A program made the translations under genes and the position numbers. DNA of 36,832 nucleotides. It comes from Fragilaria crotonensis (taxonomy: Eukaryota; Bacillariophyta; Fragilariophyceae; Fragilariales; Fragilariaceae). Shown piece after piece: positions 4,038 to 26,387 of this stretch. Location of the stretch: the NCBI GenBank assembly GCA_022925895.1, contig JAKSYS010000627.1:1-36832 (forward strand). Direction: 5' to 3'. Below the pieces are notes generated by a model. The model was not told the origin of the DNA. It ran no database searches and saw only the letters and a program-made list of their open reading frames with translations. The stretch's first letter is position 1; every line of letters starts with the position of its first letter.

Positions 4038-4070
4038 GTCGGGTACCCGGAGTTTCAGTGACGGTGGCTG

Positions 4071-4088
4071 CTATACTCCCCAGTATAG
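4071..4088 (+). other. Perfect 7-bp stem, 4-nt loop hairpin downstream of the RT stop
   Basis: CTATACT and AGTATAG flank a CCCC loop, 33 bp after the RT stop codon. It is the only perfect compact hairpin I noticed in the RT/helicase gap. It could be a 3'-UTR structure of the retroelement or chance. A run of nine T follows at 4159-4167, which on the minus strand would be an A-rich stretch just after the helicase stop. Confidence 0.5.
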
Positions 4089-4198
4089 TGCCTACCCGTG
4101 CGAGTCGAATGTCTTTTTCGTTATGGGCATAGCGGCAGCACGTAAAATAGATTTGAGGTTTTTTTTTACATAAACGAGATCCAACATGGTATTCATTA

Positions 4199-7100
4199 CT
4201 ATGTAGTTCGAAGAATTGGAACACAATTAACGCCGGGTGTCGGTAATGCTGTCTCCTGGGAGGTCAAAAACTTACAAAAAGATGCTTCAGAAGTATAAAT
4301 TTCTTCGATATACGCCTGAAAGGTACCGGAAACTTTTGCTTGGAGGAAGTTGTGCGAGAGTAATCGTCGCAATCTGCCCTTTACTGGGCAGCTGTTGCTT
4401 TCGTGCTTTGGGGCACCTGCTGCTCCTTTGAAAACCCAGCACTCACAGCACGCTCGGTTGTTCATGTAATCTTTTAAACGGGCAAAGTTTGCGATCATGT
4501 GTACTCACACCGCATGCGTAGTACATTTTCCATTGGAAACAAATGTCTTTGTTCTCTGGCAGAGTCTTACTTCCAGTTCCACGTAAGAGTGGTATTCCTC
4601 GACATGACGGTTTTCCACACACAAGACATGCCGTCGTCAATTGTAAGAGAACACGTCGCGCAGCACTTTCGTTCTTTCAGCATGTCGAATACGGTGAGTG
4701 GCCTCAGTTTGGAGATTTGTCAATGGAATGGTGCGACAGAAAGGACATGCTCCACAGTTGGCAAGCGTTTCTCTCCCAAATGAAGCGGACAAAATCTTGA
4801 TCGCACAACCCTTTGTCCTTGGGATGCATCGAATAACCAGTCGCGAACTGCGCATGATGTCATAACAGCTTTGAAATCACAATGGTCTTGTGGTGTCACA
4901 ATGTGTTCATTCAAGAGACGAGTGTATCGATACTCATCATCCCTTACGCGGTGGTCAGAAAGGTTGTCTGGTACAGCAAATAGGACTTGGCCAAACTCTT
5001 TTCGCATGCTCTTCCGTAATCGACCAAACAATTGAACAATCTGCATGGAGTCATACAAATAGCCGACACATACCAAATGTCTGCAGGAGGGATTTTCGTT
5101 GCCAACCAAACCCATTGTTGTTGAAATGAGAACATCCAACTGTCCTTTGCTCCATTCCTGTGGCACTTTGATTAACATCGTCATGAGTGGAGTCAGAGGA
5201 AACAAATTTGCATTTGAACCTATTGCTCAACTGTTCAAATAGAAGAATCCCATCCCTTTCTCAGCGACGACAATATGGACAGCTGCAAGTCCCCTTCCAG
5301 ATTCCAACTTTGTTTTAACAAAGTGAGCGGCGACATACACATAACGTGAAGAAATTGACACTTTGATTTCAAACCCTGTGGGAATTTGCCAACCACATGA
5401 TTCCCAAGGATAAGTTTGACGTCGCTGAGGTCATCGGTTCTTGATAAGCCAAGATGCCTTGCAAATCTTTTAACCATAAAAATTGAAGCGACCCACTCAA
5501 GACAACAATGGGAATACCCAGACTCGGGAGTTCTGAATAAACCTTGTATTTGTTGTCCCGGAACCTCATTTCAGATAGGATGGTGTGCACTTCGTCAATA
5601 ACAATTTTATCGACAACGTCCACCCAAGACTTGAGAACTTCATAGAACCACATGAACAAATTGCTGATGGCATCGAGGCTCAAAAAGACCAAGCTTGGGA
5701 GATTTTCTTTCTCCCGAGTTCTTCTGGTAGTGGGCCATCAGAGGTGATGTCCCGCCCCAAAAAACACAGATGTTTGACTTGAGGAAAGCTTCTCGAATGC
5801 CGTGGATGCCATTGCAAACTGATACCCAGCCAAGAAACGATATGGTGAAACATGGATGATTGTCTTTGGTTTGGTCGCAAGGTGGCGAGCAATAGTCGGA
5901 ATTATATACGATTCCGATTTGCCCTCACCTGGTGCTAGTAGAGCAAGACAGTGCTGGGGCTTGTTGTTTAACTCAGTACCATAGCCAAACTCAACCAACT
6001 CTTTCTGCTGCAGCGATAGATAGTGTTCATGGCCATTATTTGGACTTAGAAGTTGGATACCGAAGTCGCATTGCAGTGCGTAGGTCTGCCAAGGAAAGGC
6101 GTGATGGTGGATTGGGATATTAGATAGGACGTCTCCAATAGCACAATGATACGCATTAAAGTGTGCCTCTTCTGAACCAACTTGCTGGCTGGAATACGCA
6201 ATGGCATGTGTCGTTGAAGAATGACCCATTTTTGATGCCCCCATGGCACTCGCTGACAAGAACATGCCAGGTTGATGGCCACCACCGGTCACGAAGTTAG
6301 AAACACCAGCCCAAAAATGCCTTACTTGTGTCATGTTCGGAATCGCAGATAAAGAAAAAATGTCTCGGATGATATGTGATGGTTGAATGACGGAAGCATT
6401 AATCCTTGTCGGGAATATGAGATTATGATTGTTGTCACTGGTGTTACTGCAGAACATACTGCTTGCTTTCGTTTGGATCAGAGATCGAAACAACAAAAGT
6501 ATCTGGAGATAACTGGGGTAGCTTGCGCTCAATTTCTTTGCAAGTGCGTCGTGATGCGCTATTGAACCCTTTCAATGAAGAAAGTGTGTAATAGACCGTA
6601 CCATTTGTGTAGAGACAGTGGAACATGGTCGGATCGCGGAGCTCATTCAACCTTGCGGAACCACCACCGAAACCGTGGAAAGACATTTCAAAAGTGCCTT
6701 CAAATGGTCGAAACAATCCAGAGAGAAAAGTGAACCTTGTTTCCACACGGGACTCACATCTGCTAGAAAAAGGTCACCTGTGTCACAATCAACGTGGACC
6801 TTTATATTGGTCAGAACATCGATTACCGGTTTCCACCAAATTCCCTCTGCTAAGTTTGAAATTGCAACCTTCATCAAATAAACTGTCTTTGGAACAATTT
6901 GCGACCAGTCATCAAACAGAAAAGAAAACTGATCAACGACAATGTTCCCCTTTTCATCAAGTGTCGTCTTCCTCCTTTTGGGGAGTCTGCGGTGCATTTC
7001 ACGAATTTGGCGGAGCATAGGTGACAGAGAATGGATGACATGCGATTTTCTTACCGCCGTGATGAGAGCAGGACCGTGTAACGTGAACGCGTCTTCAGAA

Positions 7101-8277
7101 AACGAACATATAACGGAACAAATACCGGCTTTCAAAACAGATGTTACCTTAGCGATAAGCGAGGAAACAGTGTCACACGATATCATTTTGATTTTGGAAT
7201 CCTCTTTTTGGACACGGAATCCAGACATTAAACAGAATTCAACCGCCAATGGATGATGTTGCACTGAAGGTGGTATTTCAAGCATTAAATCCTTCAGAAA
7301 GTATGCAATTGAAAATCCATCTCTCTCGTTGAATTTCTTGTTGACAAACAGACCTCGTCGGAAGGAATATGCTAAAAGCTTTTTGAGTTCAATTAGTAAT
7401 GTAGATGGATCGTGTTGCATGGTGTATGTGCATCGTTGTGACACATCTTCAATTTCACCACCTTCAAATGTTTGCAAAGCAGCCCGAAGATCACCAGGTA
7501 CCATTTTTATGTTCTTCTGGGCATAGTTCAGAAGCCAGACTTCAGCAAGCTGGTGAAGTTTAACCAGGAATACCTCAGTTGATGGATTTGGTGGTGAATG
7601 GATCAAGTTGAAGTCAGTTTTGATTTTTCAATAAAGTGCCACCGCCACAGCCAAAAATAAGTGGGGTGAACATATGAGTATACGTGTCGTCCTGTCTTTC
7701 CCTTTGAGGTAGTAGTGGCAACAAAGCAGTTCTCGCCTCGCCGTAATCAAATTGTTCCGTGATGCGAGGTGCTTTGTTGAAGAAAGCTGAGACTTGGGCA
7801 TGGGAAACGTATCGACCACAGCAGAGTTTGATGAGTTCAACTTCCCAGCTGCAACTCATTGCAACCCATATTTTTGCAATGTCGAAGAGCGTTATCTTTC
7901 CTCGGAAAGACGGAACCGCAAGTGCACACATATCCTGTATAAGTTTTTTTGTCACTACGGTACGGCTCTATGGTGCAGGATTCCTTCGCAACGAGAACTC
8001 TTTTAGTAAATTCGTTCAACACAGAACGGACTGTAGACATTCTACTGTCCATGTGATGTTTTTTAAGGTGATCGCGGATGGATCTCTCTTCCATGTTGAT
8101 CATGTTGTGAGCATTGCATTGACGGCAGCAAAGGCCGAATGGTGAGAAAGTGAAAAGTTCTCGAATAGGATCAAGGGGGTCGATCTCTGTGCTTTGCACC
8201 AGAAGACGGACAGAAACAACAGGACTGATAATTCCGTTAACCAGCTTTTGTATTGGAGGAGAGCTTGATGATGGCAT
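4199..8277 (-). pseudogene. Zinc-finger SF2 helicase, copy A (near full length, frameshifted)
   Basis: Read from 8277 down. The N-terminus carries two zinc-finger-like motifs, CCRQC...H...H and CTCGSVF...RHCKNMGC (7840-8165), resembling the finger domain that precedes helicases in some fungal subtelomeric genes. A middle region of about 320 aa (6650-7606) leads to HGFGGGSAR (about 6670) and ASKMGHS...AYSSQ (about 6210). The helicase motifs follow: Walker A APGEGKS (about 5915-5935), DEVH (5585-5596), LSGS (about 5515), LISTTMGLVGNENP (about 5110) and motif VI QLFGRLR (about 5014-5034). The C-terminus is Cys-rich (CLVCGKPSCRG, CCECWVF), probably zinc-binding. At least six frame changes interrupt about 1,300 codons. 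The likely role is an ATP-driven DNA helicase of a mobile element. The start at 8277 is the first ATG upstream of the fingers and is uncertain, since copies D and F begin differently. Confidence 0.8.
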
Positions 8278-8562
8278 GATGGGAATGATGAGTTTGTTAT
8301 GGACAAGCCGTGATGTTTGTGTGCCTGTGTAATAAAGTCAGTCGGGAGCCGCGCCAATTTCGATAGTACCGAATTCTACTTGGATCGATCGTAACTCCCG
8401 ACGTACAAAATCGAGCTGTCTAACGTAGGAATCATTACTGGGGGATCCCTCTCGACGTACAAAAATGTCCCTCCCGACGTACAAAAATCACTCCCAACGT
8501 ATCTAATAAAAGTATCCATACCTGAGGATATATAATCTACATAGAAGCTCGCCCCCTTAGGG
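7586..8562. repeat. Direct duplication, first copy (helicase 5' part plus terminus of A)
   Basis: This stretch is repeated at 8574-9542. By eye the coding part has about eight indels and about five substitutions in 700 bp, while the last 261 bp differ at one base. The duplicate is joined through a 13-bp remnant (8563-8575). Confidence 0.9.
8278..8562 (-). promoter_or_regulatory. Right terminus of element A: helicase 5' flank with iteron array ending in TTAGGG
   Basis: The non-coding flank upstream of helicase A. Twelve-base iterons with core CTCCCGACGTAC lie at 8395, 8449 (CTCTCGACGTAC), 8471 and 8491 (CTCCCAACGTAT), with a degenerate one at 8416 (CTGTCTAACGTA). The last iteron is followed by exactly 54 bp and then TTAGGG at 8557-8562. 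Because it lies directly upstream of the helicase it may act as promoter, as binding site for the element protein, or both. That function is inferred. The final 261 bp (8302-8562) recur almost unchanged in B and C. Confidence 0.75.
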
Positions 8563-8575
8563 CCTTCTCCTTAGG
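8563..8575. repeat. 13-bp terminus remnant
   Basis: CCTTCTCCTTAGG equals the last 13 bp of the second kind of terminus (compare 16709-16721). It looks like an element reduced to its extreme right end, between terminus A and fragment B. Confidence 0.6.
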
Positions 8576-9257
8576 TGGTGAATGGATCAAGTTGAAGTCA
8601 GTTTTGATTTTTTCAATAAATTGTGTGCCACCGCCACAGCCAAAAATAAGTGGGGTGAACATATGAGTATACGTGTCGTCCTGTCTTTCCCTTTGAGGTA
8701 GTAGTGGCAACAAAGCAGTTCTCGCCTCGCCGTAATCAAATTGTTCCGTGATGCGAGGTGCTTTGTTGAAGAAAGCTGAGACTTGGGCATGGGAAACGTA
8801 TCGACCACAGCAGAGTTTGATGAGTTCAACTTCCTGCAGCTGCAACTCATTGCAACCCATATTTTTGCAATGTCGAAGAGCGTTATCTTTCCTCGGAAAG
8901 ACGGAACCGCAAGTGCACAAATATCCTGTATAAGTTTTGTCACTACGGTACGGCTCTATGGTGCAGGATTCGCCGCAGCGAGAACTCTTTAGTAAATTCG
9001 TTCAACACAGAACGGACTGTAGACATTCTACTGTCCATGTGATGTTTTTAAGGTGATCGCGGATGGATCTCTCTTCCATGTTAATCATGTTGTGAGCATT
9101 GCATTGACAGCAAAGGCCGAATGGTGAGAAAGTGAAAAGTTCTCGAATAGGATCAAGGGTCGATCTCTGTGCTTTGCACCGGAAGACGGACAGAAACAAC
9201 AGGACTGATAATTCCGTTAACCAGCTTTTGTATTGGAGGAGAGCTTGATGATGGCAT
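8576..9257 (-). pseudogene. Helicase 5' fragment, copy B
   Basis: Encodes only the finger region and the following 80 or so residues (CTCGSVF...CKNMGC, then LIKLCCGRYVSHAQ and FGCGGGTQF). It stops being homologous to helicase A at HSPP, where the reading frame runs into the 13-bp remnant and terminus A, adding KEKALRGRASM before a stop. Relative to copy A it keeps the frame after CNELQLQ, where A has a 2-nt loss, but it is broken earlier at HLKK by a missing T. Neither copy is intact. Confidence 0.85.
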
Positions 9258-9542
9258 GATGGGAATGATGAGTTTGTTATGGACAAGCCGTGATGTTTGT
9301 GTGCCTGTGTAGTAAAGTCAGTCGGGAGCCGCGCCAATTTCGATAGTACCGAATTCTACTTGGATCGATCGTAACTCCCGACGTACAAAATCGAGCTGTC
9401 TAACGTAGGAATCATTACTGGGGGATCCCTCTCGACGTACAAAAATGTCCCTCCCGACGTACAAAAATCACTCCCAACGTATCTAATAAAAGTATCCATA
9501 CCTGAGGATATATAATCTACATAGAAGCTCGCCCCCTTAGGG
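9258..9542 (-). promoter_or_regulatory. Right terminus of fragment B
   Basis: Homologous to the flank of copy A. The last 261 bp (9282-9542) differ from A at one position (gtaGtaaag). The last iteron ends at 9482 and TTAGGG begins at 9537, giving the same 54-bp gap. Confidence 0.8.
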
Positions 9543-9576
9543 TATTATATCTATTTTTAGGCCCGCCCCCTTAGGG
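9543..9576. repeat. 34-bp terminus remnant
   Basis: TATTATATCTATTTTTAGGC and the following GCCCCCTTAGGG match the last part of the terminus at 14494-14661. A different element family reduced to its final 34 bp, ending in TTAGGG (9571-9576). Confidence 0.7.
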
Positions 9577-9659
9577 CAATCAAAGTAGCTTGTATATTGG
9601 AAAACTTGAAATTGTATGAGATTTTTTACACAAACCCTTGACTCTATCCATTTTCTATA

Positions 9660-9900
9660 ACATTTCAACACCTAACATTAACCCTATTGGTATTATGTTT
9701 ATCAACAGCAATAACCCAAACCTTATCAATCTTAACCAGAAATTCAACACTAACCCTAAACCTTATCAGTCTTGTTTAGTCTTCAACAATAACCCTAAAC
9801 CCTATCAGTCTTGTTAAATTTTTCAACAGTAATCCCAAACCCTATCAGTCTTGTACTAATTTTCAACACTAAACCCAAACCCTATCAGTCTTGTGAAAAT
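9660..9900. repeat. Telomere-like minisatellite in M1
   Basis: About five degenerate units of roughly 45-55 bp built on TTCAACACTAACCCTAAACC followed by CTATCAGTCTTG. The units contain CCCTAA/CCCTAAA-type words but are not a pure telomere array. Confidence 0.75.
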
Positions 9901-10157
9901 TTTTGTCTCCATTCTAATCTTATTAAAAAATTAATTCACTATATAGTCGGCAATCAGAAATATTCACAGTGTTACACATGTTTTTACATACAATCCTTAG
10001 TCATGTAGAGGTCTTATTTAGCACTTCAATACAAATATTGACTCTTATTAAGCTTTTTGTAACAAGAATGCACATGCGCCTGTAACTAAGCATGTTTGGA
10101 ATCACTTTTTTTTCATTCTCATAAATCCTGCATCGCTACACTTTTGCACTTTAGTGT

Positions 10158-10439
10158 TTGAAGTGGCATTGTGAATTGGATCCTGCTCACCATGATGTAC
10201 CAGGTAGCCGCAGAGCCGAGACCAATGACTGGAGGAACATGATTAATGCGACGGCATACATGATTCCTCCTATCATTGAGAAAATGGACACAGCTAGTCT
10301 GGACATCACAAATGGTACCAGAGCCCAGCTCCACGCCACTACACAGGACACCAAAGACAACTGGAAATGCATATGTGGCAGTAGGATCAATGCAATCAAG
10401 CAACACTCCTTCTGTTTAGCCTCTTTCATTAAGATGTAA
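10158..10439 (+). pseudogene. Zinc-finger-like module ORF, M1 copy, frameshifted
   Basis: Encodes DPAHHDVPGSRRAETND...MINATAY...IIEKMDTASLDI, then a WKC-CG...IKQHSF segment. Against M2 it lacks bases in the CxxC region (WKCICG instead of WKCILCG) and breaks soon after. It is a degraded copy of the M2 ORF. Confidence 0.7.
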
Positions 10440-10663
10440 GGACGTTGACTAAGTTTGAACACGTATGCTTATCAATTACTGATGAAGTTGCAAAGGAACT
10501 TGTAAACAAGCCAAGCAACCAAACAACGAACAAATGAATGAAGGTGACGAGTGAAGAGCAACAGTATCAAAAACAATAGACTAGTAGTATGCTCGTGGAT
10601 GATAGTATTGTTATCATTGTAAGGTCCTCATCAGCAACAATACATTTTGTTGCTAGTGATCCT

Positions 10664-10924
10664 GACAAGCCGTGATGTTTGTGTGCCTGTGTAATAAAGT
10701 CAGTCGGGAGCCGCGCCAATTTCGATAGTACCGAATTCTACTTGGATCGATCGTAACTCCCGACGTACAAAATCGAGCTGTCTAACGTAGGAATCATTAC
10801 TGGGGGATCCCTCTCGACGTACAAAAATGTCCCTCCCGACGTACAAAAATCACTCCCAACGTATCTAATAAAAGTATCCATACCTGAGGATATATAATCT
10901 ACATAGAAGCTCGCCCCCTTAGGG
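10664..10924 (-). repeat. Terminus C: isolated 261-bp right end
   Basis: By eye identical to the last 261 bp of terminus A, starting abruptly after M1 sequence. Iterons follow the same order, the last ends at 10864, and TTAGGG lies at 10919-10924. No helicase sequence accompanies it, so this is either a truncated element or the right end of an internally deleted M1 element. Confidence 0.85.
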
Positions 10925-11933
10925 ACTTCAAGCAACAAGTCCTTCAAAAAGTAGGGCACTGCAAAGGCATTGCTTGTGTCAAAGCCTCTCGATGCAAAGA
11001 GACCTCGTCTGTAAGAAAAGGATAAAAGCTTTTTCAACTCTGGAAGCAAACTCCGTGGATCGTGTTGCATTGTGTAGGTACAACGATGTGATATCTCTTC
11101 TATTTCACCACCTTCAAATGTTTGAAGTCCAGCGCGGAGATTGCCAGGAACCATCAATATATTTTTGCACGAACTTAAGGAGCCAATCCTCAGCATGCTT
11201 GTGGATTTGAACCAACAAGAACTCAGTTGATGAGCACGGTGATGAATGGATCGAAGAAAGTCGGATTTATCTTCTGGACAAATTGTTTGCCACCACCGCA
11301 TCCATGAATAAGGGGTGTAAACATATGTGTGCGTATGATCCTGTTTTTCCCTTTTGGAAGAATAGGAAAAAGCACAGCTCTTGCCTCACAATAATCAAAT
11401 TGCTGTTTTGAATTGTGTGGTGATTCGTTGAAAAATGAAGTGACTTTAGCATGAGTCACATACCTGCAGCAAAGCTTGATGAGATCAACTTTCTGTAGTT
11501 TTGAAGAATCACAACCCACAGTCTTGCAGTGTCGATTTGCATTTCCAATCTTTACAAAGGATTGACCACACACACAAGAAAATCCAGCATAGGTTTTGCT
11601 GTCGCTCCGATACGGATCGATACTTCCCAAAGCCTTTGCATGAAGTAGTTCCTTTTTATATTCTTCAAGGAGAGAACGGACTGTCGAAACCCTACTGTCC
11701 AAACCATGTTTTTTCAAGTGGCGGCAGATGCATCTCTCGTCCAACTCAACTGTTGCACAGTTGTTGCTTTGAAGGCAGCGAAGACCAAATGGAGAGAAGG
11801 AAAATAGTTCTCGAATGGATGAAAGATGATGGTCAATGCAATTGAATGTGTTGGATGATGTCATGGTGCGATCAGTTTGATGATTTGTTTTGTACAAGTG
11901 GTGATTCAGTGATGTTCCAAGAGCACAGACCAT
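10925..11933 (-). pseudogene. Zinc-finger helicase 5' fragment, copy D
   Basis: From 11933 it encodes an N-terminal part with IRELFSFSPFGLRC, HLKKHGLDS, a second finger CVCGQSF...NRHCKTVGC, and FGCGGG-like HGCGGGKQF. After one frameshift near 11260 it continues (MVPGNLRAGLQTFEGGEIEE, YTMQHDPRS) to LKDLLLEV. There it is cut and joined to terminus C, with the frame running on as a chimeric tail to 10738. MTSSNTF at about 11862 is an alternative start. It is clearly diverged from copy A, so it belongs to another subfamily. Confidence 0.8.
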
Positions 11934-12140
11934 GTGTTACTTTTAAATTTAAACATTACTGAAGCTTACGGGGGTGTCCTGTGGCTCCTATGGTATATTT
12001 CCCTATTTGAAAAGTGGCTCCGATGGCAGAAATTTGGCTCCTGTGGTACTTTTCTCTAAATAAAATAGCTCCTGTGGTATCAAGTAAAAATATTTATATC
12101 TGAGGAATATTTATCTAGTTTGAACCCCGCCCCCTTAGGG
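11934..12140 (-). promoter_or_regulatory. Right terminus of D with CTCCTGTGGTA iterons
   Basis: Iterons start at 11985 (CTCCTATGGTAT), 12018 (CTCCGATGGCAG), 12038 (CTCCTGTGGTAC) and 12069 (CTCCTGTGGTAT), at intervals of 33, 20 and 31 bp. The last ends at 12080 and TTAGGG begins at 12135, a 54-bp gap. The core differs from that of A although the layout is the same. Confidence 0.8.
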
Positions 12141-12167
12141 CCTTCTCCTTAGGGCCTTCTCCTTAGG
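12141..12167. repeat. Two tandem terminus remnants of 14 and 13 bp
   Basis: CCTTCTCCTTAGGG followed by CCTTCTCCTTAGG. They match the extreme right end of the termini at 16372 and 16721. Confidence 0.65.
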
Positions 12168-12864
12168 CGGATATCTGTTTGACAGTATTCTCCAGGCTTT
12201 TATGCTTTCTCTCGAATTCTTTGGATTGTTTGAGAAGGGCAGTATCGATGAGCGATTGTAACGTCTCCGAGCGCAATTCAATATTCGAATCAATTTGCAT
12301 GGATGCCGTTTCAGTAGCTTTCGTAACAGTTTGTTCCGTAAAATATGCACCCAACTTCTGTTTAGAAGATTGGTAAGCAACAGAGACAAAATATTGTTCC
12401 ATCGGTGTGTGGACGAAGCGTTGGATCTTAAGAAGGATTTCACCCGGTGGGTTTGTTTCCTCAATAAGAGAAGTGCAGTCCGCGAGCGATGCTGGGTTAT
12501 TAATCCAGCCTCTATCAAGAACCCTGGGGTCTTGAGTAGGGAAACGAGATGCGAGAACTTTTGAGAATTCGTCGCGTGTACAGAGTTCCTTGCTTGCATT
12601 CCTCCGTTCGTTCAACATACAAAGTAGAAAGTGAACTTTGTAGTCGCTTGGATCGGCAGACTTGGCAAGCAGAGAAGTGGAACAGATATGTGTTAAAAGA
12701 GAGACGAATCTTTGAACGACAGTATCATGTAGTACTTTCACTTCAAGTTCCGCTGCTTTGTGGATGAGGACCACGCGAGCACTATCTTGATAAGTAGTGA
12801 CCACAGTCTTCATAGATTCACGAAGAGCGAGGGCTTCAGGATGATCGGTCGCGTCGTTGGACAA
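12163..12864 (-). CDS. Unknown protein E, 3'-truncated
   Basis: A 233-codon open frame of unrecognised family. Its last 60 residues (IELRSETLQS... KEFERKHKSLEN) are charged and heptad-like, so a coiled coil is possible. It ends KQISA, and its TAA stop lies inside the CCTTAGG remnant (12163-12165), so the natural C-terminus is missing and the stop is supplied by the junction. The start at 12864 may not be native. A short upstream frame from about 13144 (MSNPATSATNKSPSPTQ) has Ser/Lys-rich sequence that could be its N-terminus after frameshifts. Its position, left-truncated against terminus remnants, is the same as for the helicase fragments. Confidence 0.55.
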   Translation of the reverse strand: MSNDATDHPEALALRESMKTVVTTYQDSARVVLIHKAAELEVKVLHDTVVQRFVSLLTHICSTSLLAKSADPSDYKVHFLLCMLNERRNASKELCTRDEFSKVLASRFPTQDPRVLDRGWINNPASLADCTSLIEETNPPGEILLKIQRFVHTPMEQYFVSVAYQSSKQKLGAYFTEQTVTKATETASMQIDSNIELRSETLQSLIDTALLKQSKEFERKHKSLENTVKQISA

Positions 12865-13606
12865 AACGAGTAGAGTAGATAATCTGATGCTTCTTGGAAT
12901 GAATGAGGATCTTCAAGTCGATGTAGCGTAGATTTCTTTGTAGCAACAGTTGTAATTCAAAAGTTCGATACATAACGGGGTGAAGAATGATTTTCTTTAG
13001 AATCGTGCGACGCAAGTGCTTGAGTGATCGACGATTTTGCAGCGTTTGCTGGGGTAGTAATCGGATCTTGATTCTTTTTCCAGCAGCGAGTGCTGGGTTG
13101 GAGAGGGACTTTTGTTTGTTGCGCTGGTCGCAGGATTAGACATGGTGGAATGTAGGTTAGGGTAAAAGTGGAAGAAATACATGTGTCCGATCAAACGATA
13201 TTTAGAGAAGTGACAACTAACAAGTCTTTTATGTTTAAGACTTTCGCTGGATGCTTCGTCAGGCTGAGTTGTGAGATTGTCAGAACAAAAAATGCAAAAT
13301 AGGATTGCGGACAATGGCGAGGAAAAGGCGAGGTGTATCGCTTAAAACGATAACGTCTTTGTGACGTGTCGTGATAGCGATACTTAGCCAAAAAACTCGC
13401 GGTGGACGTTAGAAAGCGACTCCGGTGTTCGCAATGACGCGTTAGTCGGCGTCAGCGAGGCAATTGGCGAATCTAGTCGTGAAACGTGATAGGGTAACAG
13501 ACAGATAAGCGGAGTAACATTGTGGAACGTCACCTTGTGGAGCTAGGGTTGTCACGTTTGTCACGGGTTAAGGTGACGTTGTGACAAAAAGTTCCGTGCA
13601 TGGACC
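12865..13606. other. Upstream region of gene E; no convincing gene
   Basis: I see the possible N-terminal coding remnant (about 13000-13144) and otherwise unique sequence rich in GTGACG/CGTTAG words. No RNA gene or conserved ORF is recognised. Confidence 0.4.
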
Positions 13607-13980
13607 ACGAATTTCGAGTTTTCAATCACGAATGGCATGGCCACCAACTTCGCATTTCACACCGTAACTTCACTAAAAATAGACCAATTCTTAATCTGAA
13701 ACGACGAACGTTGAGAATGGGACAAGGCGAAGAAAGTTGTACATCGGGTCTTCGAACGAAACGTACCCACTGAGGCTGAACACAGCCATAAGAACGACGA
13801 AATTCGAGTTTTCAGTTGTGACTGGTATTTCCTCCAGCTTCACATTTCATACTGTATCTTCGCTAAAAATAGACCAATTTTGAATCTGAAGTAATAGTCG
13901 TTGAGACAGCTTCAAAGCGAAGAAAGTTGTATAAGAGGTCTTTGAACGAAATAAACCTGATGAGGATGAAAACTCAATCA
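13607..13980. repeat. Degenerate tandem repeat, two units of about 190 bp
   Basis: Unit 1 (13607-13796) and unit 2 (13797-about 13980) share ACGAA-TTCGAGTTTTCA, CTAAAAATAGACCAATT and GCGAAGAAAGTTGTA at the same offsets. The sequence is non-coding as far as I can tell, and the function is unknown. Confidence 0.75.
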
Positions 13981-14145
13981 TCAAGTGGTCTTCATGGTAG
14001 TTAGAGTAGTGCCGACGAGTGCACAAGAAGAAAATTGGGCAGCAAAGTATAAGTGAGCATACCAGGTTGTACATACTTCAAAGCACTTTTGACAATCCTC
14101 AACATGGTACATAAATCTACGGGGATGTTCAGTACAAAGAAATCT

Positions 14146-14250
14146 CTCCGGACGTACCTCCGAACGTACAACGACGCCCTCGCAACGTATCAAGTAAAAA
14201 CATGCATACCTGAAGCTTTTTTATCTATATTTTCGGCCGCCCCCTTAGGG
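14146..14250. repeat. Right terminus T5 (CTCCGGACGTAC iterons)
   Basis: Iterons at 14146 (CTCCGGACGTAC), directly abutting 14158 (CTCCGAACGTAC), and at 14179 (CTCGCAACGTAT). The last ends at 14190 and TTAGGG begins at 14245, again 54 bp. It is probably the right end of the element carrying gene E. Confidence 0.75.
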
Positions 14251-14493
14251 CGAACGTCAAACGCTGATAACGTCATATTTCGGTCAACGGTCACTTTCAT
14301 AGCTAGCAAGTAAATTCCTCGCGGATCTCCGGGTTCGCCGGGATGGGGTACACACTTGAGTCCGTACGGTCTCAGGACGGTGACAACCCGATAATTAGGT
14401 TTCGTTTTGTTTTAAAAACACCACCAGTGGTATCAAGTAAAAGCATTCATACTTGAAGACTTTTTATCTAGAAACAGCCCCTTCTCCTTAGGG
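14251..14493. repeat. Short fragment ending in terminus T6
   Basis: About 170 bp of unique sequence, then a single iteron CACCAGTGGTAT (14422-14433), the constant 54-bp block and TTAGGG (14488-14493). It is a heavily truncated element of the CACCAGTGGTA family. Confidence 0.7.
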
Positions 14494-14661
14494 AACGCGG
14501 CGTAGCACCCGACGTACACGTCTCTAAATAAAAGTGACACACGACGTACAAAAAGTGACATCCACCGTACAAATCCTAAGTTAAAAATGACACCCGTCGT
14601 ATCAAGTAAAAGTATCTATATCTGTGGATATTTTATCTATTTTTAGGCCCGCCCCCTTAGG
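14494..14661. repeat. Terminus T7 (CACCCGACGTAC iterons), nothing else retained
   Basis: Iterons at 14506, 14538, 14559 and 14591, at intervals of 32, 21 and 32 bp. The last ends at 14602 and TTAGG starts at 14657. It sits directly against T6 on the left, so only the terminus of this element survives. Confidence 0.8.
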
Positions 14662-14784
14662 AGCATGAACATATTCAAGAAGGAAAGTATGAGACGAGCA
14701 GAGTAGCTTGTAAATCAGAAAAGTTGAAATTGTATGAGATTTTTTACACTAACCCTTAACTCTATCCATTTTGTATTACATTTC

Positions 14785-15058
14785 AACACCTAACATTAAC
14801 CCTATTGGTATTGTGTTTATCATCAACAATAACCCAAACCTTATCAGTCTTAGAAAGAATTCCACACTAACCCTAAACCCTATCAGTCTTATTTTGTTTT
14901 CAACACTAACCCCAAACCCTATCAGTCTTGTTTTGTTTTCAACACTAACCCCAAACCCTATTAATCTTGTTAAATTTTTCAACAGTAACCCCAAACCCTA
15001 TCAGTCTTGTATTAATTTTCAACAACAAACCCAAACCCTATCAGTCTTGTGAAAATTT
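14785..15058. repeat. Telomere-like minisatellite in M2
   Basis: Five to six degenerate units of CAACACTAACCCCAAACCC followed by TATCAGTCTTGT. On the plus strand they translate as repeated TLTPNPISLVLF, which is a consequence of the repeat and not evidence for a gene. Confidence 0.75.
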
Positions 15059-15312
15059 TTGTTTCCATTCTAATCTTATTAAAAAATTAATTCACTTTTT
15101 AATCGGCAATCAGAAATATTCACAGTGCTACACATGTTTTTACATACAATCCTTAGTCATGTAGAGGTCTTATTAAGCACTTCAATACAAATATTCACTC
15201 TTATTAAGCCTTTGTAACAAGAAAGCACATGCGCCTGTTACTAAGCATGTTTGGAATCACTTTTTTTTCTTTCTCATAAATCCTGCATTGCTACAGTTTT
15301 GCACTTTAGTGC

Positions 15313-15675
15313 TTGAAGTGGCGTAGTGAATTGGACCCTGCTCACCATGATGTACCAGGTAGCCGCAGAGCCGAGACCAATGACTGGAGGAACATGATTA
15401 ATGCGACGGCATACATGATTCCTCCTATCATTGAGAAAATGGACACAGCTAGTCTGGACATTGCAAAGGGTAGCAGAGCCCAGCTCCACGCAACTACACA
15501 GCACACCAAAGACAACTGGAAATGCATTTTATGTGGGAAAATGTTCAATGCAATCAAGCAACACTCCTTCTCTTTAGCCTCATTGACTAAGTTCGATCAC
15601 GTATGCCTATCAATTACTAATGAAAATGCAAAGGAACTTGTGAACAAGCCAAGCAACCAAGCAACAAACAAATGA
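15313..15675 (+). CDS. Zinc-finger-like small protein of module M2
   Basis: A 120-codon frame. Residues 10-60 (HHDVPGSRRAETND... IIEKMDTASLDI) are shared with M1 and M3. Residues 66-105 contain WKCILCGKMF...IKQHSF...HVCLS, which looks like a BED- or C2H2-type finger (CxxC followed by His/Cys) but lacks a textbook spacing. The start is the first ATG after a stop, and upstream sequence is conserved in M1, so the true N-terminus may differ. It could be an intact small gene or an exon of a larger truncated one. It is AT-richer than the Copia genes. Confidence 0.5.
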   Translation: MKWRSELDPAHHDVPGSRRAETNDWRNMINATAYMIPPIIEKMDTASLDIAKGSRAQLHATTQHTKDNWKCILCGKMFNAIKQHSFSLASLTKFDHVCLSITNENAKELVNKPSNQATNK

Positions 15676-16040
15676 ATGAAGGTGACGAGGAACACTTAAA
15701 TGATGACAAGCAATTAGGCAATGGAAAACAATAGACTGGTAGTGTTGAATAATTACGGAGTATCGTTATGGATGATAGTGTTGTTATGATTGTAAGGTCC
15801 TCATCGACAACAATACCTTGTGTTGCTAGTGATCCTGTCGTCCTCATCGTATAGTTGCCTTCATCCTTGTGGTTGCTAGCTTTAGTAGCGACTCGCTTGT
15901 AATGTTGTTGATAACCTGGAGTGTCACCTGCATAGCAAGGTGTTGTCAATAATGTGTAGTGTCTCCTTTGTCACAAGGTGAAGCGTCGTCGTCGCGAGGT
16001 GAACGAAGCAATGAACAAACGATTGAACAAAGAAACTGGC

Positions 16041-16372
16041 GCATGATTTTCAGTATTGAATTCTACGGAGACGATCCGTAACTCCCGATGTACAAGTTTG
16101 AAATTGTGTCATAGGAATCATTACTAAGTTATCCCTCCCGATGTACCTCCGGACGTACAACAAAAAGCATTACCAGGATTGTTCACACTGCATTGGTAGT
16201 ATGGAGCTCGGTACCACCAGTGGTATATGATGCTAATTAAAAAGGCCCACCAGTGGTACAAAAATATACACCGGAGGTATGTGATCCTAAATAAAAACAC
16301 CACCAGTGGTATCAAGTAAAAGCATACATACTTGAAGACTTTTTATCTAGAAACAGGGCCTTCTCCTTAGGG
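16041..16372. repeat. Terminus T8, compound: inner GACGTAC and outer CACCAGTGGTA iterons
   Basis: Inner part resembles terminus A (GAATTCTAC, AGGAATCATTACT) with iterons at 16082 (CTCCCGATGTAC), 16135 and 16147. The outer part has CACCAGTGGTA-type iterons at 16215, 16248, 16269 and 16301 (intervals 33, 21, 32). The last ends at 16312 and TTAGGG starts at 16367. Two iteron families in one end suggest recombination or a nested insertion close to the end. Confidence 0.75.
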
Positions 16373-16432
16373 AGAGAAAGTGAAAAGCATTACTGGTTCA
16401 ACCTCAATAGTTGCATTTGTTTTTGCAGACAT
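16370..16432 (-). pseudogene. Helicase N-terminal stub, copy F (21 codons)
   Basis: From ATG at 16432 the frame reads MSAKTNATIEVEPVMLFTFSP and then meets TAA, supplied by the CCCTAA complement of TTAGGG in T8. LFTFSP matches copies A and D (LFTFSP/LFSFSP) just before the first finger. The stub is followed upstream by its own flank and terminus T9, so this is an element retaining only about 60 coding bases. Confidence 0.65.
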
Positions 16433-16721
16433 GATGATGATGGGGTGTGATAGATTTTTTGCATGGCGAGTCCAATGGAATACTCACTCTTTTTTTGAAA
16501 AATTGTCTACATAAAAGCATTACCAGGATTGTTCACAGTGCATTGGTAGTATGGAGCTCGGTACCACCAGTGGTATATATTGCTAGTTAAAAAGGCCCAC
16601 CAGTGGTACAAAAATCTACACCGGTGGTATGTGATCCTAAATAAAAACACCACCAGTGGTATCAAGTAAAAGCATTCATACTTGAAGACTTTTTATCTAG
16701 AAACAGGGCCTTCTCCTTAGG
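16433..16721 (-). promoter_or_regulatory. Terminus T9, right end of stub F
   Basis: Iterons at 16565, 16598, 16619 and 16651 (intervals 33, 21, 32). The last ends at 16662 and TTAGG starts at 16717. The block 16514-16721 is a close duplicate of 16165-16372 in T8. Confidence 0.8.
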
Positions 16722-17430
16722 TTTCATGTATGTGCATTGAATGTGGATACTAATTAAATTGTTAGCAAATTAAGTCTTACTAAAAATTTATTACTTACAA
16801 ATATTCTTGACAAGAAAGCAAATGCGCCTGTAACTAAGCATGTTTGGAATCACTTTTTTTGGTTTCTCATTAATCCTGCATCGCTTCTGTGTTGCCCTTT
16901 AATGTTTGTACTCTTGTAGCGAAATGGACGCTGCTCATCATGATGTACCAGGTAGCCGCAGAGCCGAGACCAATGACCGGGGGGACATGATTAATGCGAC
17001 GGCATACATGCTTCCCCCTATCATTGAGAAAATGGACACAGCTAGTCTGGACATCGGGAATGGTGGCAGAGCCCAGATCCACATGAATACACACAGCAAA
17101 GAATACTCAGATGATGATGTAAGTGATGACAATCCCAATCCCAAGAAGGGGTTCCAGCATGTCTACAAGTCGAAGACAAATTCGAGTCACAGAGTGATGG
17201 TTGCACACGACGCATCGACGACAAAAGGTACGCCAAATAGCAAGCTGGGCAAACGAGATAATAAGAAGTCAAAGAAAATCGCCAGCCTTCAGGAGGTGTT
17301 GCCATCAAATGTGCACGCAATGGGAAGGTCATTCTTGAGCACGCGCCCTGTGTTTTATAGTGGGACACCCAGGAGAAGTCTCCCAATCCCATTGACAATG
17401 GCATTATGCTTTCAGCAATGGAAGATCTAA
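16722..17430 (+). pseudogene. Module M3: shared N-terminal segment leading into the oxygenase gene
   Basis: About 16811-17080 repeats the M1/M2 segment (TGCGCCTGTAACTAAGCATG through GGACAGCTAGTCTGGACATC). The frame opened at 16906 reads HHDVPGSRRAETND...IIEKMDTASLDI, then diverges from M2 into an acidic stretch (YSDDDVSDDN) and a basic, possibly nuclear-targeting stretch (KLGKRDNKKSKK). The next plus frame carries SPNPIDNGIMLSAMEDLKV just upstream of the oxygenase frame, so I think two frameshifts separate what was one protein. Confidence 0.55.
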
Positions 17431-17458
17431 AGGTAATCGACACCATTTTGGAGCCAGA

Positions 17459-18184
17459 ATGGAGTCTGCTGCTGGTGACACTGTGTTTACCTTGATCCCC
17501 CGTCACGATGCAATCCATAAAATGACACATGTGAAAAAGACAATTGCTTCTCTGTATGCCTTAGATGATGCGAAGCGAGCAGCTGAAGTGCGTGGAAAGA
17601 CTCGAATCACAGTGGCGGAAGACAATGGCAAGTATGTGACAGTGGGCTTGAAACCAAACCGAGGCTCTGTGGGCGTTTCTGAGATCTGGCCGCAGAAATT
17701 GAACATTGCTGACAGGAACTCAATTAGAAAGTTAATGGCACGTTGTGAGGAAGCTGCCAAGGGCTACATTCCATCAAACGAACTCCGTGGTCTGCGCATT
17801 GCACAAGTACTTGGTGAGTGGAAGGAGATCAGTGGAGTGTCCTCCAATCCAATCTGGGGAAGTCTTGCTTGTGGGCGGAACTACTATTTGAATTCCCACG
17901 TTGATGAGGATTTCTTTTATTCTTTGACAACCGTTACTTCTGAGCACGGACTGCAACAAGACATTGACAGGTACAGCATGGATGCTGATGTCAGTAACTA
18001 TTTCACTTTTGCTGAACAAGGAATCGCTGTTGCATTGAGACCAGGTGACATGCTGATTTTCAATCCGCTGTATCACCACTGTTTGTCCTCTCGTACTTCT
18101 GCATTTCAAAGTGTGGATGTCTTTTGTTTGTCCTTGTACCTGAAGACGGCTGTGGTTGGTAAGAATGATAATAGTTTGAATTAG
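17459..18184 (+). CDS. Predicted 2OG-Fe(II) dioxygenase-fold protein
   Basis: A 241-codon frame. HVDED gives a candidate metal-binding His147/Asp149. GDMLIFNP and HHCLSSR give a distal His206/207 and a possible 2-oxoglutarate-binding Arg212, followed by a conserved-looking VFCLSLYLKTAVVGKND tail. This HxD...H...R order with a GD turn fits a double-stranded beta-helix oxygenase. Whether it is TET/JBP-like, acting on bases in DNA, or acts on protein is not decided by sequence alone. The start is the first ATG in this frame, and upstream codons open from 17396 plus the M3 ORF suggest a longer original protein. It converges with helicase J across a tandem repeat. It is the longest unbroken non-Copia frame with recognisable catalytic residues here. 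Confidence 0.6.
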   Translation: MESAAGDTVFTLIPRHDAIHKMTHVKKTIASLYALDDAKRAAEVRGKTRITVAEDNGKYVTVGLKPNRGSVGVSEIWPQKLNIADRNSIRKLMARCEEAAKGYIPSNELRGLRIAQVLGEWKEISGVSSNPIWGSLACGRNYYLNSHVDEDFFYSLTTVTSEHGLQQDIDRYSMDADVSNYFTFAEQGIAVALRPGDMLIFNPLYHHCLSSRTSAFQSVDVFCLSLYLKTAVVGKNDNSLN

Positions 18185-19399: not shown

Positions 19400-19553
19400 T
19401 GAACGAATTCTACTGTGTCTGCGTCATATTGGGCTACGGCCAGACCAAGTGGGGTTTCTCCGGACTTAGTTTATAATCTTGTTCTATCCTAATCACTAAT
19501 GCCATGCTGCCCCACAATGATGGATTTCCAGTAGTAACGGTAGGTTTTATTCA
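19400..19553 (+). repeat. 5' LTR of Copia 1
   Basis: 154 bp, begins TG and ends CA, identical by eye to 26388-26541. TTATAATC near 19471 is a possible TATA box. Confidence 0.9.
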
Positions 19554-20666
19554 GTTTATCAGACCCAGCACTCACGTGTTGGCACGCAAAAGGACTGGCG
19601 TGAATGATCTGGAGGGAACAGAACATTCGTCCTTGCAAACGAGCGCGTTGTAGTTCAACTGTGAAGGCGGGACGACAAAGTACAGTCGTCGGACCGGTGA
19701 TCTCAACTTCACACTACCCGATTAGCAGCGAAGGATCGTTCGCAAAACGGTAGCGGGAGTAGCTCTCCCGACGTAATCGTGCAGACCATAACCGTCGTGC
19801 TGACGAACGGTTTTGTCGACGATTGGATCGGTCATGTTCATCATGACGACCGTTTCCAGGAGCGGAAGTGCCCAGTTCAGCCTGGGAAGTGGCGTCTGCG
19901 ACGGCAGATGATGCCGCGAAAGGGACACCGAGCGGCAAAGGAATAGCCGGACACCATGAGGCCAGGGAGGTCAGAAAGGACATGGTTGGGCGAAACGGCG
20001 ATCACAGCTACGCTGCGGTCATCCGTTCCTCGAAGATTCGAGAGGAATCGCCTGGGGTCATGATTCCGATCGTGGCCACGACCAGGGTTCCAAATTGCAG
20101 CCTAAGTCTTGAAGGAACAAGATTGGAAAGCTCTTTAGAACCTTGGGGGAATTGACTGGTGACTGCATAGCCCTAGCTAACCTGGAGGGTTGCCGGGAGG
20201 TCATGCAGCGCAGGCTAAGTGGCACGGACAATTAATGTCTAAGTAAAGTGCTGCGTCGGACGTTTTCTAAGTGATTTTAACGTTACGGATTTTACTTAAG
20301 GAATCAAGTCCCGAGGATGGTCGTTAGCGAGCGGTTAGGGCAATACTGAGTTTTTATTCTGTGCAGTCGAATGAGTCGAATGGCACATGTGGCAGCGTTA
20401 CACACGCCAATCATGCGTAACGCACGCACGATGACGCGAATGTGAAACGCATCTACGTGTGGGCCGGTACAAACGCACGGCGATGCATGAAATGCACTGA
20501 GAAACTCCAGGAATGTCCTGACATACTATGACCTACGTAAATGCTACGTATAAAACTCGCGGATGATCCCAAACAATTGGCGACGAGTTTGTTTGTGGAA
20601 ATATCACAATATTCCAATAAAACAACTCAAGAAGGCACTTTTCCCAACATTCCAACATCTTCGACC
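19554..20666 (+). other. Copia 1 primer-binding site and long 5' leader
   Basis: The sequence just inside the LTR, GTTTATCAGACCCAGC, resembles a tRNA-derived primer site only loosely (TATCAGA is shared with the initiator-Met type). About 1.1 kb of leader follows. It contains a 95-codon frame at 19868-20155 with no recognisable domain, and I see no further gene. Confidence 0.5.
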
Positions 20667-22037
20667 ATGGACGACGACGAGCAGTCCGAGGAGTTCACCG
20701 AGGCACTCGTTTACATCGGTTTCAACAGGGTCACCGCAGAGGCGATCGTTGCGCAGGGATTTACTTCCCCGTTGACGCTTCTGACCGTCTCTGAAGACAG
20801 TCTCTCCGATGACGAGGCAGGTTGCAAGGAACAACCCACGCCAAGGAGTTAACTTTCCCTTTGTCAGCGTTAACCTCCTTAAAGGTTTTCGCCATTGACT
20901 GCGTCGCAGATTCGATGTGGACTCGAGGCGAACTCGGAGGATTTCTCGAGGGCCAAGGCAGAGGAGGCGGTGGATAGGATGCAGGAGGAGAAGAAGTTGC
21001 TGGATGGCATGGATGCCATGACTCCAAGGAAGCCGGAGGTGCTCAAGAACCTCAGCTTGTGGGTTAAGTGGTGGGAGTCATGGGACAATTACATCTACCA
21101 CTTCCGAGCTGAGGCGAGATGCCCGTTGTCCTACATTCATCGAGCGCACACGGAGGTGACGAACGAAGTGCGGGACGTCGAGTACGATGATTTGGACGAC
21201 CATTTGGTCAACAATACCGTGCTCGAAGGCCAACATTACGCCATCGACAACAAGCGATACTATGCAGAGTTCAAGAGTTATATCTCGGACGGACCTGGTT
21301 GGACCTTTATCAAGCACTTTGACGCCAAGAAGGATGGTCGCGGCGCAGTTCTTGCTCTCAGGAAGCAGTGTGAGGGCGAGAGCGCTAACATGACTATCAA
21401 GGCGAAGGCTTATGCGAAGCTCGGTGCGTCCCAGTTTACTGGACATCGACGCAATTGGACGTTTCAGCATTATGTCCAAGCTCACCAGGAAGCTCACGCT
21501 GAACTGGAGCTGGTGGGTGAGGCCGTTCCCGAGACGAAGAAGGTTCAGGATTTCTTGGCGAACATCAAGGATCCGACTCTGCAGATGGGTGTGACGCATT
21601 GCTTTGGTGAGCCTGAGAAGCTCAAGTCGTTTGAAAGCTGTCAGCAGTATCTTTCGACGCTAGCGACGACGACGCGGGCCTACAAGGATGCTGGGAGTGC
21701 GGCAAGGAGCGTGAGCTCCGCGTCGACCGGCGCAGGTTCCAAGTCGTCGGGTGGCAAGGGAACCAAACGCAAGGGTGGCAAGAAGCAAGCAAACACCAAA
21801 GGTTACTCCAATGAGGAGTGGTGGGCTATGTCTGATGCCGAGCGGGCTGCGGTCGTTAAGGCACGCAAGGAAGCCGGCGGCAAAGGAAGAAGAAAGCCAA
21901 GAAGGAACGCCAAGCTTCTGTCTCTGGGGTTGATTCCGGGGACGGAAACGGGGACGGTAATGCCCGACTCCAACGTCAGCGTCCGCGAACGCAGGCGACC
22001 AGTTTGGGAGGAGAGCCCATTCTGGTGGGAGTGGTAA
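20667..22037 (+). pseudogene. gag: Copia 1 gag-like gene
   Basis: Starts at ATG 20667 (MDDDEQSEEFTEALVYIGFN, then RVTAEAIVAQGFTS), a typical N-terminus for these Gag proteins. A frameshift near 20815 and an in-frame TGA near 20895 interrupt VNFPFVSVNLLKGFRH. The remainder, 20895-22037, is open for 380 codons and holds the capsid-like region (WWESWDNYIYHFRAEA) and a basic Gly/Lys-rich tail (GGKGTKRKGGKKQ). No CCHC zinc knuckle is visible, and the basic tail may replace it for RNA binding. The product would assemble the virus-like particle. Confidence 0.75.
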
Positions 22038-22062
22038 CCGAGTGGCGGAAACGCCAACTCGG
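22038..22062 (+). other. Hairpin with GAAA tetraloop directly after the gag stop
   Basis: CCGAGT-GGCG, loop GAAA, CGCC-A-ACTCGG: ten base pairs with one bulged A, starting at the base after TAA (22035-22037). The pol frame is the same frame, but a second in-frame TGA follows at 22065, and the first pol ATG is at 22080. Confidence 0.65.
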
Positions 22063-22079
22063 ACTGACGCAAGGTCCTA

Positions 22080-26197: not shown

Positions 26198-26387
26198 TGG
26201 GATGGCTTTTGGCCTGCGAAGCAGGTGGCTGGCCTTGGCCTACGAGCGTAGGTGTGGATGGGCTAATACTATTCGGTAATGGATGTCCGAACGGCCTCTG
26301 GTGTTACGTGATATTTGGTGTTTTGTGAGGAGTACGAATCCGGGGACGAGCGAATCACCGATGGATCGGTATTTTGCTCGCGGGGAC
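26198..26387 (+). other. Copia 1 3' untranslated segment with two small hairpins
   Basis: CCTGC-GAA-GCAGG (26213-26225) and CCTAC-GAGC-GTAGG (26239-26252) lie within 60 bp of the pol stop. The stretch ends GCTCGCGGGGAC before the LTR, a weak polypurine tract. Confidence 0.5.

What the first reader, a model, noticed from the sequence alone, without database searches (positions are those of the whole stretch)
8395..16721. Iteron arrays with helically phased, conserved spacing and an exact 54-bp distance to TTAGG
At nine termini (last iterons ending at 8502, 9482, 10864, 12080, 14190, 14433, 14602, 16312, 16662) the gap to TTAGG is always exactly 54 bp, although the iteron cores differ (CTCCCGACGTAC, CTCCTGTGGTAC, CTCCGGACGTAC, CACCCGACGTAC, CACCAGTGGTAC). 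Four-iteron arrays start at intervals of 33/20/31, 32/21/32, 33/21/32 and 33/21/32 bp, close to 3, 2 and 3 helical turns. Terminus A gives 21/33/22/20 if one degenerate iteron is counted. Preserved geometry with drifting sequence is what a multimeric protein-DNA complex on one DNA face would leave behind. I do not recognise this as the end of any described transposon class.
Basis: seen in the sequence. Interest (0 to 1): 0.88.

Follow-up and report, generated by a model that had tools for sequence, protein, structure and literature searches.

The report
Mobile chromosome-end caps in a diatom
In a diatom genome, stretches of DNA that run from the telomere to one exact inner edge studded with likely protein-binding sites appear to be copied as whole chromosome ends onto other chromosomes, a way of moving DNA that matches no transposon type we found described.

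Summary
All nine window termini have the 54-bp gap; the block occurs 91 times in the 62-Mb diatom genome (reversed control 0), and 83 of 95 fetched copies have TTAGG at the exact distance, 88 within 1 bp. Iterons come in 25 variants with spacings near 2 and 3 helical turns.

The block is the inner (centromere-side) end of a one-ended unit whose other end is the chromosome end. The four contigs found to begin with telomere repeats all carry it, facing the same way. C490 and C754 are 99.6% identical over 10.0 kb, from telomere repeats to CCTTAGG, then unrelated; two further pairs behave alike, and three pairs share the inner flank but carry different ends. Flanks are joined at (A)GG: 31 of 40 uninterrupted homologues have GG there, background 5%. 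The unit encodes a zinc-finger-like SF2 helicase; no second end and no reverse transcriptase was found.

Best reading: self-spreading chromosome-end caps copied onto other DNA ends at AGG. The architecture is shown; the copying route, protein binding and the helicase's role are inferred. Some copies lie 59-155 kb from the predicted contig end and remain unexplained.

The parts
4238..8175 (-). ZnF-like + SF2 helicase gene of the leftmost unit (frames broken), 5' end next to the terminus
   Evidence: tblastn/ORFs; 74.5% DNA identity to C754 over 4.0 kb
8395..8502 (+). iteron array, own-type iteron starts at about 8395, 8449, 8471, 8491
8500..8561 (+). 62-bp terminal block ending CCTTAGG
8562..8575 (+). 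14-bp relic GCCTTCTCCTTAGG of another terminus type
   Evidence: sequence; same relic in C754 and C783
8576..9541 (-). second unit: helicase gene N-terminal part truncated on its outer side, plus terminus 9480-9541
9542..9575 (+). 34-bp relic of a third terminus type
   Evidence: (D6)
9576..10923 (.). internally deleted unit: outer region with 39-bp repeats and start of gene B joined to a helicase 5' leader and terminus 10862-10923
10924..12139 (-). helicase unit truncated on its outer side within the gene, iterons, terminus 12078-12139
12140..12167 (+). two tandem 14-bp relics GCCTTCTCCTTAGG
12168..14249 (.). unit with an ORF (12163-12912, -) and 190-bp repeats, terminus 14188-14249; 12140-14661 also in C783 with different sequence on both sides
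14250..14492 (+). 243-bp unit, terminus 14431-14492
14493..14661 (+). 169-bp unit, terminus 14600-14661
14662..16371 (.). outer region (39-bp repeats, start of gene B) + iterons + terminus 16310-16371; the same inner flank occurs in C389 behind another terminus type
16372..16721 (+). 350-bp unit, iterons about 16565-16662, terminus 16660-16721
16722..18184 (+). gene B region (2OG-dioxygenase-like by recalled motif only), start of a unit also in C592, C551, C269
18558..29607 (-). ZnF-helicase gene of that unit, split by a copia-like LTR element about 19400-26541
   Evidence: 154-bp LTRs 100% identical

Best explanation
The iteron block is the inner end of a mobile chromosome-end cap. A cap is everything from the telomere to CCTTAGG: telomere repeats, satellite, accessory genes, a ZnF-like SF2 helicase gene read towards the telomere, iterons, the 62-bp block. 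SHOWN: caps are near-identical on different contig ends with unrelated inner flanks, the same inner flank can carry different caps, the switch point is CCTTAGG in each of these pairs, the receiving site is mostly (A)GG, and older units are truncated where the next cap abuts. INFERRED: the zinc-finger part of the helicase binds its own family's iterons, the inner edge is opened at TTA/AGG, the helicase unwinds towards the telomere, and a broken or cut chromosome end (3' ...CCT) is extended on that strand out to the telomere, gaining the whole cap while its own outer part is lost: a site-specific form of break-induced replication. A cap thus spreads by capping DNA ends.
For: C490:247-10243 vs C754:433-10445, 99.6% over 10,023 bp from beside the telomere repeats to CCTTAGG; C592 vs C783, 98.9% over 10,385 bp; inner flanks unrelated in these and in C551/C269. 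Same flank, different cap: C588:12139/C783 (flank 97.6% over 2538 bp), C588:16371/C389 (97.7% over 353 bp; only 44 bp outside the block was available in C389, but its block is of another family), C23:1482/C122 (95.4% over 1919 bp). Contigs with a telomere-repeat run at base 1: C23, C490, C592, C754, 4 of 4 with termini in the same orientation relative to it (hypergeometric 9.5e-7). Orientation uniform in 19 of 19 contigs with more than one hit. GG at -2,-1 in 31 of 40 uninterrupted homologues, background 0.05. Of nine joints tested in telomere-ended contigs, five clearly lack a near-identical outer arm of the interrupted sequence further out. 1324-codon open helicase frame in C490, Pfam DEAD 2e-13, Helicase_C 8e-6. 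No relative of the window's RT/pol ORFs in six caps, and no Pfam RT in the ORFs scanned.
Against: Some termini are far from the predicted outer contig end: C273 (about 155 kb), C122 (about 61 kb), C197 (about 59 kb); mean position is on the predicted side in only 22 of 29 contigs (one of the 7 misses, C754, does have its telomere on the predicted side). Of the nine joints in telomere-ended contigs only five are clear: two are ambiguous (C592 15702 and 15898, a tandemly duplicated end), one rests on a 76% homologue (C592 14300) and one lies in a tandem repeat (C23 12809); among the open ones C783r 20113 is ambiguous too. Only 40 of 79 unique flanks had a usable homologue, some only 67-76% alike, and 9 of the 40 lack GG, among them the flank of the key copy C490 (best homologue GA). 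No nuclease or joining enzyme was recognised (structure models useless). Only four telomere-ended contigs were found. One other contig, C427, has degenerate interior telomere-like runs and no listed terminus.
Confidence: 0.66

Rival explanations
1. Ordinary two-ended DNA transposon (perhaps very large) with an unrecognised outer end, nested in itself in subtelomeres.
For: Iterons at an end, an encoded zinc-finger-like protein, internally deleted copies and nesting are all usual for DNA transposons; interior copies exist (C273, C197, C122).
Against: The C490/C754 and C592 caps run into satellite and telomere repeats with no target flank outside; the outer half of the interrupted target is clearly missing in 5 of 9 tests in telomere-ended contigs, the other 4 being unclear; no inverted repeats of 30 bp or more with 14-bp seeds in 7600-17500; orientation uniform in 19 of 19 contigs.
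Confidence: 0.13
2. Homologous recombination or break-induced replication between subtelomeres, using the 62-bp block as shared homology; CCTTAGG is only the inner limit of homology, as with duplicated subtelomeric blocks.
For: Swaps of caps at shared flanks could arise by crossing over inside the block; [quoted passage not shown]
Against: Receiving sites do not contain the block: uninterrupted homologues mostly show only (A)GG. In the C588:16371/C389 pair the last shared run before the flank is 7 bp.
Confidence: 0.12
3. A telomere-attaching retroelement (HeT-A, TART, Terminon or MoTeR kind) whose RNA 3' end is CCTTAGG, using a reverse transcriptase supplied elsewhere, for example telomerase.
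For: Arrays of one orientation, truncated on the telomere side, and 2-3 nt complementarity at the joint are what such attachment gives; non-LTR RT copies sit in the window and in C23.
Against: No RT found in the 10-kb caps; the copied unit includes satellite next to telomere repeats and two convergent genes; no poly(A) or telomere repeats at the joints listed; the RT in C23 lies in the opposite orientation.
Confidence: 0.06
4. Assembly artefact: chimeric joins at a high-copy end.
For: Fragmented assembly, 881 contigs.
Against: The same base in dozens of joints with different flanks, and the GG rule at receiving sites; both shared and non-shared sides run over kilobases in several pairs.
Confidence: 0.03

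Closest known systems
Yeast subtelomeric Y' elements (Y'-Help1 helicase)
   Same: Next to telomeres, encode a helicase, amplified at chromosome ends; BIR required for their spread (PMC13177704, passages read)
   Different: Here there is a fixed inner edge with iterons, joined to unrelated DNA at (A)GG; no telomere repeats were seen at the inner edge
Fungal telomere-linked (subtelomeric RecQ) helicases
   Same: Helicase gene family at chromosome ends, some copies truncated (Agaricus bisporus, PMC7473861, passages read)
   Different: The protein here is not recognisably RecQ (TIGR00614 E 0.038) and carries N-terminal zinc-finger-like motifs; I found no report of a precise mobile edge in what I read
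Telomeric retroelements: HeT-A/TART (recalled), Terminons (PMC6431247, passages), MoTeRs (PMC7367193, search listing), FoTeRs (PMC12857005, abstract and outline)
   Same: Attachment at chromosome ends; polar arrays and truncation (Terminons; HeT-A recalled)
   Different: No reverse transcriptase found in the unit; joints at non-telomeric AGG; the moving unit includes satellite and reaches to the telomere repeats
Helitrons (recalled)
   Same: Asymmetric, helicase-encoding, no inverted repeats found
   Different: No Helitron or Rep domain in Pfam scans; different end and target

Membership tests
Two-ended (TIR) DNA transposon | Two defined ends, usually inverted repeats | tested here: not met
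   No inverted repeat of 30 bp or more with 14-bp seeds in 7600-17500; no outer end found in the caps compared. Shorter inverted repeats not excluded
Two-ended (TIR) DNA transposon | Target flank kept on both sides | tested here: inconclusive
   Nine joints in telomere-ended contigs: outer arm clearly absent in 5, unclear in 4
Helitron | HUH Rep nuclease plus Pif1-type helicase | tested here: not met
   Pfam: DEAD, Helicase_C and weak ResIII and SecA_DEAD hits only
Telomeric retroelement | Reverse transcriptase in the element | tested here: not met
   tblastn with five window RT/pol ORFs: none in six caps; no Pfam RT in the ORFs scanned. A very diverged RT is not excluded
Yeast Y' element | Telomere-adjacent unit encoding a helicase | tested here: met
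Yeast Y' element | Telomere repeats between tandem units (recalled) | tested here: not met
   Telomere-repeat scan: besides contig starts only one short match, C551r 9722, not at a joint; joints are CCTTAGG to varied flank
Fungal telomere-linked helicase | RecQ-family helicase | tested here: inconclusive
   TIGR00614 recQ_fam E 0.038; cas3_core E 5e-6 and DpdF E 3e-4; all below their cut-offs
2OG-Fe(II) dioxygenase (gene B) | Profile match to a 2OG family | tested here: not met
   No Pfam, NCBIfam or PDB profile support; HxD...H-like motif from recall only
Iteron-bound multimeric complex | Protein binding to the iterons | not testable with these tools
   Geometry only

The most novel reading that the evidence does not exclude
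A class of mobile element whose transposing unit is a chromosome end: one end is the telomere, the other a ZnF-bound iteron edge that is opened site-specifically and joined to any AGG, replacing everything beyond it. It moves as DNA, without reverse transcription and without a second transposon end, and doubles as a telomere rescue system.
Probability: 0.5. Interest if true: 0.95.

Novelty: categorically new. Interest (0 to 1): 0.86.

Why it matters
If true, it adds a DNA-based, one-ended way to mobilise chromosome ends, between a transposon and break-induced replication. It would give a defined substrate and a candidate enzyme for asking how a chromosome end can be site-specifically copied onto another, how subtelomeres diversify in diatoms, and whether selfish helicases drive telomere rescue; the long-noted helicases at yeast and fungal telomeres could be re-read in that light.

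Tried and rejected
TTAGG as telomere repeat: rejected; it faces away from the telomere, and the GG matches the receiving site. Exact pattern ACGTAC-N-TTAGGG: 12 hits against 117 for the reversed control, none in the window, because the last iteron of these ends reads GTAT and its core varies. RecQ membership: not supported. PDB by sequence: first query no hit, helicase core of C490 only weak SF2 hits, best E 0.027, profile A1 no hit. Structure prediction from single window sequences: pLDDT 32 and 36, unusable, so no fold search was run. Viral contigs: no relative of the helicase core. 2OG identity of gene B: no profile support; gene B also occurs in contigs absent from the terminus list, for example C108, C388, C54 (93 matches), so it is not cap-specific. 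Microhomology-only joining: T at -4, the next base of the end, is not enriched (8 of 40) while A is (20 of 40), so a sequence preference is likelier, but both fit. Literature: searches listed no such element; only open-licence papers are held. Papers seen: PMC7473861, PMC9266582, PMC13177704 and PMC6431247 by passages; PMC12857005 abstract and outline; the rest as search listings only.
Full report
WHAT WAS CHECKED. The whole genome (62.1 Mb, 881 contigs; the window is all of contig C588) holds 91 matches to the core pattern at up to 2 mismatches in 29 contigs, 0 for the reversed control. It is a diatom, judged by silicon-transporter family matches: 19 listed, 18 over the cut-off. In fetched sequence 95 core matches have TTAGG at +57 in 83, +56 in 3, +58 in 2, none in 7. 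I did not fetch every one of the 91 hits.

ITERONS. The last iteron has 25 variants; upstream copies are of the terminus's own variant. For 74 termini with 260 bp upstream (exactly identical upstreams counted once), the mean is 2.27 further iterons against 0.024 in mononucleotide shuffles; the commonest intervals are 21 (40 times), 33 (26), 32 (25), 20 (23) and 31 (16), and 165 intervals of 70 bp or less give R 0.82 at 10.5 bp.

WHERE THE END SITS. Two scans for telomere repeats found runs at base 1 of C23, C490, C592 and C754 (sequence) and degenerate interior runs in C427, which has no listed terminus. The four telomere-ended contigs carry the terminus, with CCTTAGG facing inward (4 of 4; 29 of 881 contigs carry it; p 9.5e-7). 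The 19 contigs with more than one hit have one orientation each (19 of 19). From the telomere inward C592 reads: repeats 1-478, a satellite with a period of about 52 bp to about 2670, genes, gene B (+), helicase gene (-), iterons, CCTTAGG at 13728. C490/C754 are shorter: satellite, one large + frame, helicase, terminus; about 10.1 and 10.0 kb without telomere repeats, the limit in C490 taken by eye. C23 has an internally deleted cap of 824 bp.

ONE EXACT EDGE, TESTED BOTH WAYS. Same cap, different flank: C490 and C754 are 99.6% identical over 10,023 bp, from beside the telomere repeats to the last base of CCTTAGG, then unrelated. C551/C269 (99.4% over the 1.4 kb compared) and C592/C783 (98.9% over 10,385 bp) behave the same. 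Same flank, different cap: C588:12139 and C783 share 2538 bp (97.6%) beginning at the first base after CCTTAGG; C588:16371 and C389 share 353 bp (97.7%); C23:1482 and C122 share 1919 bp (95.4%); on the other side they belong to different families (for C389 only 44 bp beyond the block was available). In the C389 pair the last common run before the flank is 7 bp, too short for ordinary homologous exchange. I chose the nine pairs from matches seen; the three not named here are copies alike on both sides or begin in a short tandem repeat.

THE RECEIVING SITE. 89 joints ending in a TTAGG-type end (ends without it were not taken) gave 79 distinct flanks with enough sequence; for 40 of them fetched sequence held an uninterrupted homologue aligned from base 1-3 (39 had none and were dropped; some of the 40 are only 67-76% identical). 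At the two bases before the joint 31 of 40 have GG (background 0.05); A at -3 in 26, A at -4 in 20, T at -4 in 8. Nine do not have GG, among them the flank of C490 (best homologue GA). So the GG of TTAGG mostly corresponds to a GG already at the receiving site, with a preference for AAGG. Many flanks are interiors of other copies of the same helicase gene. Short relics (GCCTTCTCCTTAGG at two places in C588 and one each in C783 and C754, two of these four doubled and shared by descent between C588 and C783; a 34-bp one at 9542-9575) look like old termini cut at an inner GG and re-capped.

WHAT IS MISSING OUTSIDE. For 27 of the 40 joints (those in ten contigs with enough sequence) I looked for the outer half of the interrupted homologue further out in the same contig. 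Of nine joints in telomere-ended contigs, five clearly have none (C754 10445, 12075, 15168; C592 16548; C490 10243); C592 14300 rests on a homologue of only 76%; C23 12809 lies in a tandem repeat (matches of 74-89%) and is uninformative; C592 15702 and 15898 have 100% matches that belong to a tandemly duplicated end and are ambiguous. Among the 18 others, C551r 6456 has a 98.8% match and C269r 6656 an 80% match, both lying inside the gene of the capping unit itself, and C783r 20113 a 100% match to the adjoining repeat. The outermost unit fetched has the helicase gene end to end (frames often broken) in C754, C592, C783, C551, C269, C490 and C588, not in C23; many units further in are truncated.

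GENES. C490 has a 1324-codon open frame (5893-9864, -): zinc-finger-like motifs, a long middle part without family match, an SF2 helicase (Pfam DEAD 2e-13, Helicase_C 8e-6) and a Cys-rich tail. The C754 copy has further N-terminal residues in frame and is broken elsewhere, so I do not claim that either copy is fully intact. A genome search with the N-terminal part lists 130 matches; by my count these fall in 34 contigs, 25 of which also carry termini; further long frames (1260, 1254 codons) are in C84 and C578. It is not recognisably RecQ. Gene B resembles 2OG dioxygenases only by motif recall; no profile supports it, and it also occurs elsewhere. No relative of the window's five RT/pol ORFs lies in six caps.

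MECHANISM. Shown: moving unit, exact inner edge, receiving site, polarity, and loss of outer target sequence in five clear cases. Inferred: the protein binds its iterons, the edge is opened near TTA/GG, the helicase unwinds outward, a recipient 3' end ...CC(T) is extended on the donor strand to the telomere. It fits that the joint shares 2-3 nt, that the joined flank keeps its GG, and that the gene lies directly beside the iterons. A nuclease, if any, is unidentified. I give about 0.66 to the mobile-cap reading and roughly 0.4 to this copying route.

AGAINST. C273, C122 and C197 carry termini 59-155 kb from the predicted outer contig end; mean position is on the predicted side in 22 of 29 contigs (p 0.004). 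Two interior copies are themselves cut at a different, similar end (...CCGCCACCTT), which suggests sister families I did not survey. Only four telomere-ended contigs were found in the assembly.

NOVELTY. Nearest are yeast Y' elements and fungal telomere-linked helicases (telomere-adjacent helicases, recombination) and telomeric retroelements (one-sided attachment). None of the passages I saw describes an RT-less unit with the telomere at one end and a sequence-specific edge at the other; the literature searches listed none, within open-licence papers only.

Noticed in passing
window 19400-26541 and 29609-36826: Two LTR retrotransposons in and beside one cap unit: 154-bp LTRs 100% identical, and 412-bp LTRs 99.8% identical, so both look recent.
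   Followed up: no
window 231-4132: Non-LTR retrotransposon pol pieces (+) beside the leftmost helicase gene; relatives lie in C23 in the opposite orientation.
   Followed up: partly
L065 (C273) and L067 (C122): Helicase homology stops at a different end-like sequence ...CCGCCACCTT, possibly a sister family of caps.
   Followed up: partly
terminal blocks, e.g. window 8552-8561: YCCTT|AGG at the edge resembles, from recall only, the cleavage site of poxvirus type IB topoisomerase; may be chance.
   Followed up: no
L033 480-2670; C23 2182-2435; C783: Satellite with a period of about 52 bp next to telomere repeats, also found inside older units, perhaps marking former chromosome ends.
   Followed up: partly
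window 9716-9902 and 14833-15058: 39-bp repeats rich in CCCTAA-like words (AACCCTAAACCCTATCAGTCTTG...) upstream of gene B.
   Followed up: no
G000 C97:29749-33762: Three silicon-transporter copies in one 1456-codon open frame.
   Followed up: no
L046, L047 (C427): Interstitial degenerate TTAGGGG/CCCCTAA runs about 26 kb apart, facing each other, without termini.
   Followed up: no
L065 (C273): Open frames that look, from recall, like a Plavaka-type transposase and a BED-like finger between a helicase part and a gene-B-like frame; family not tested.
   Followed up: no
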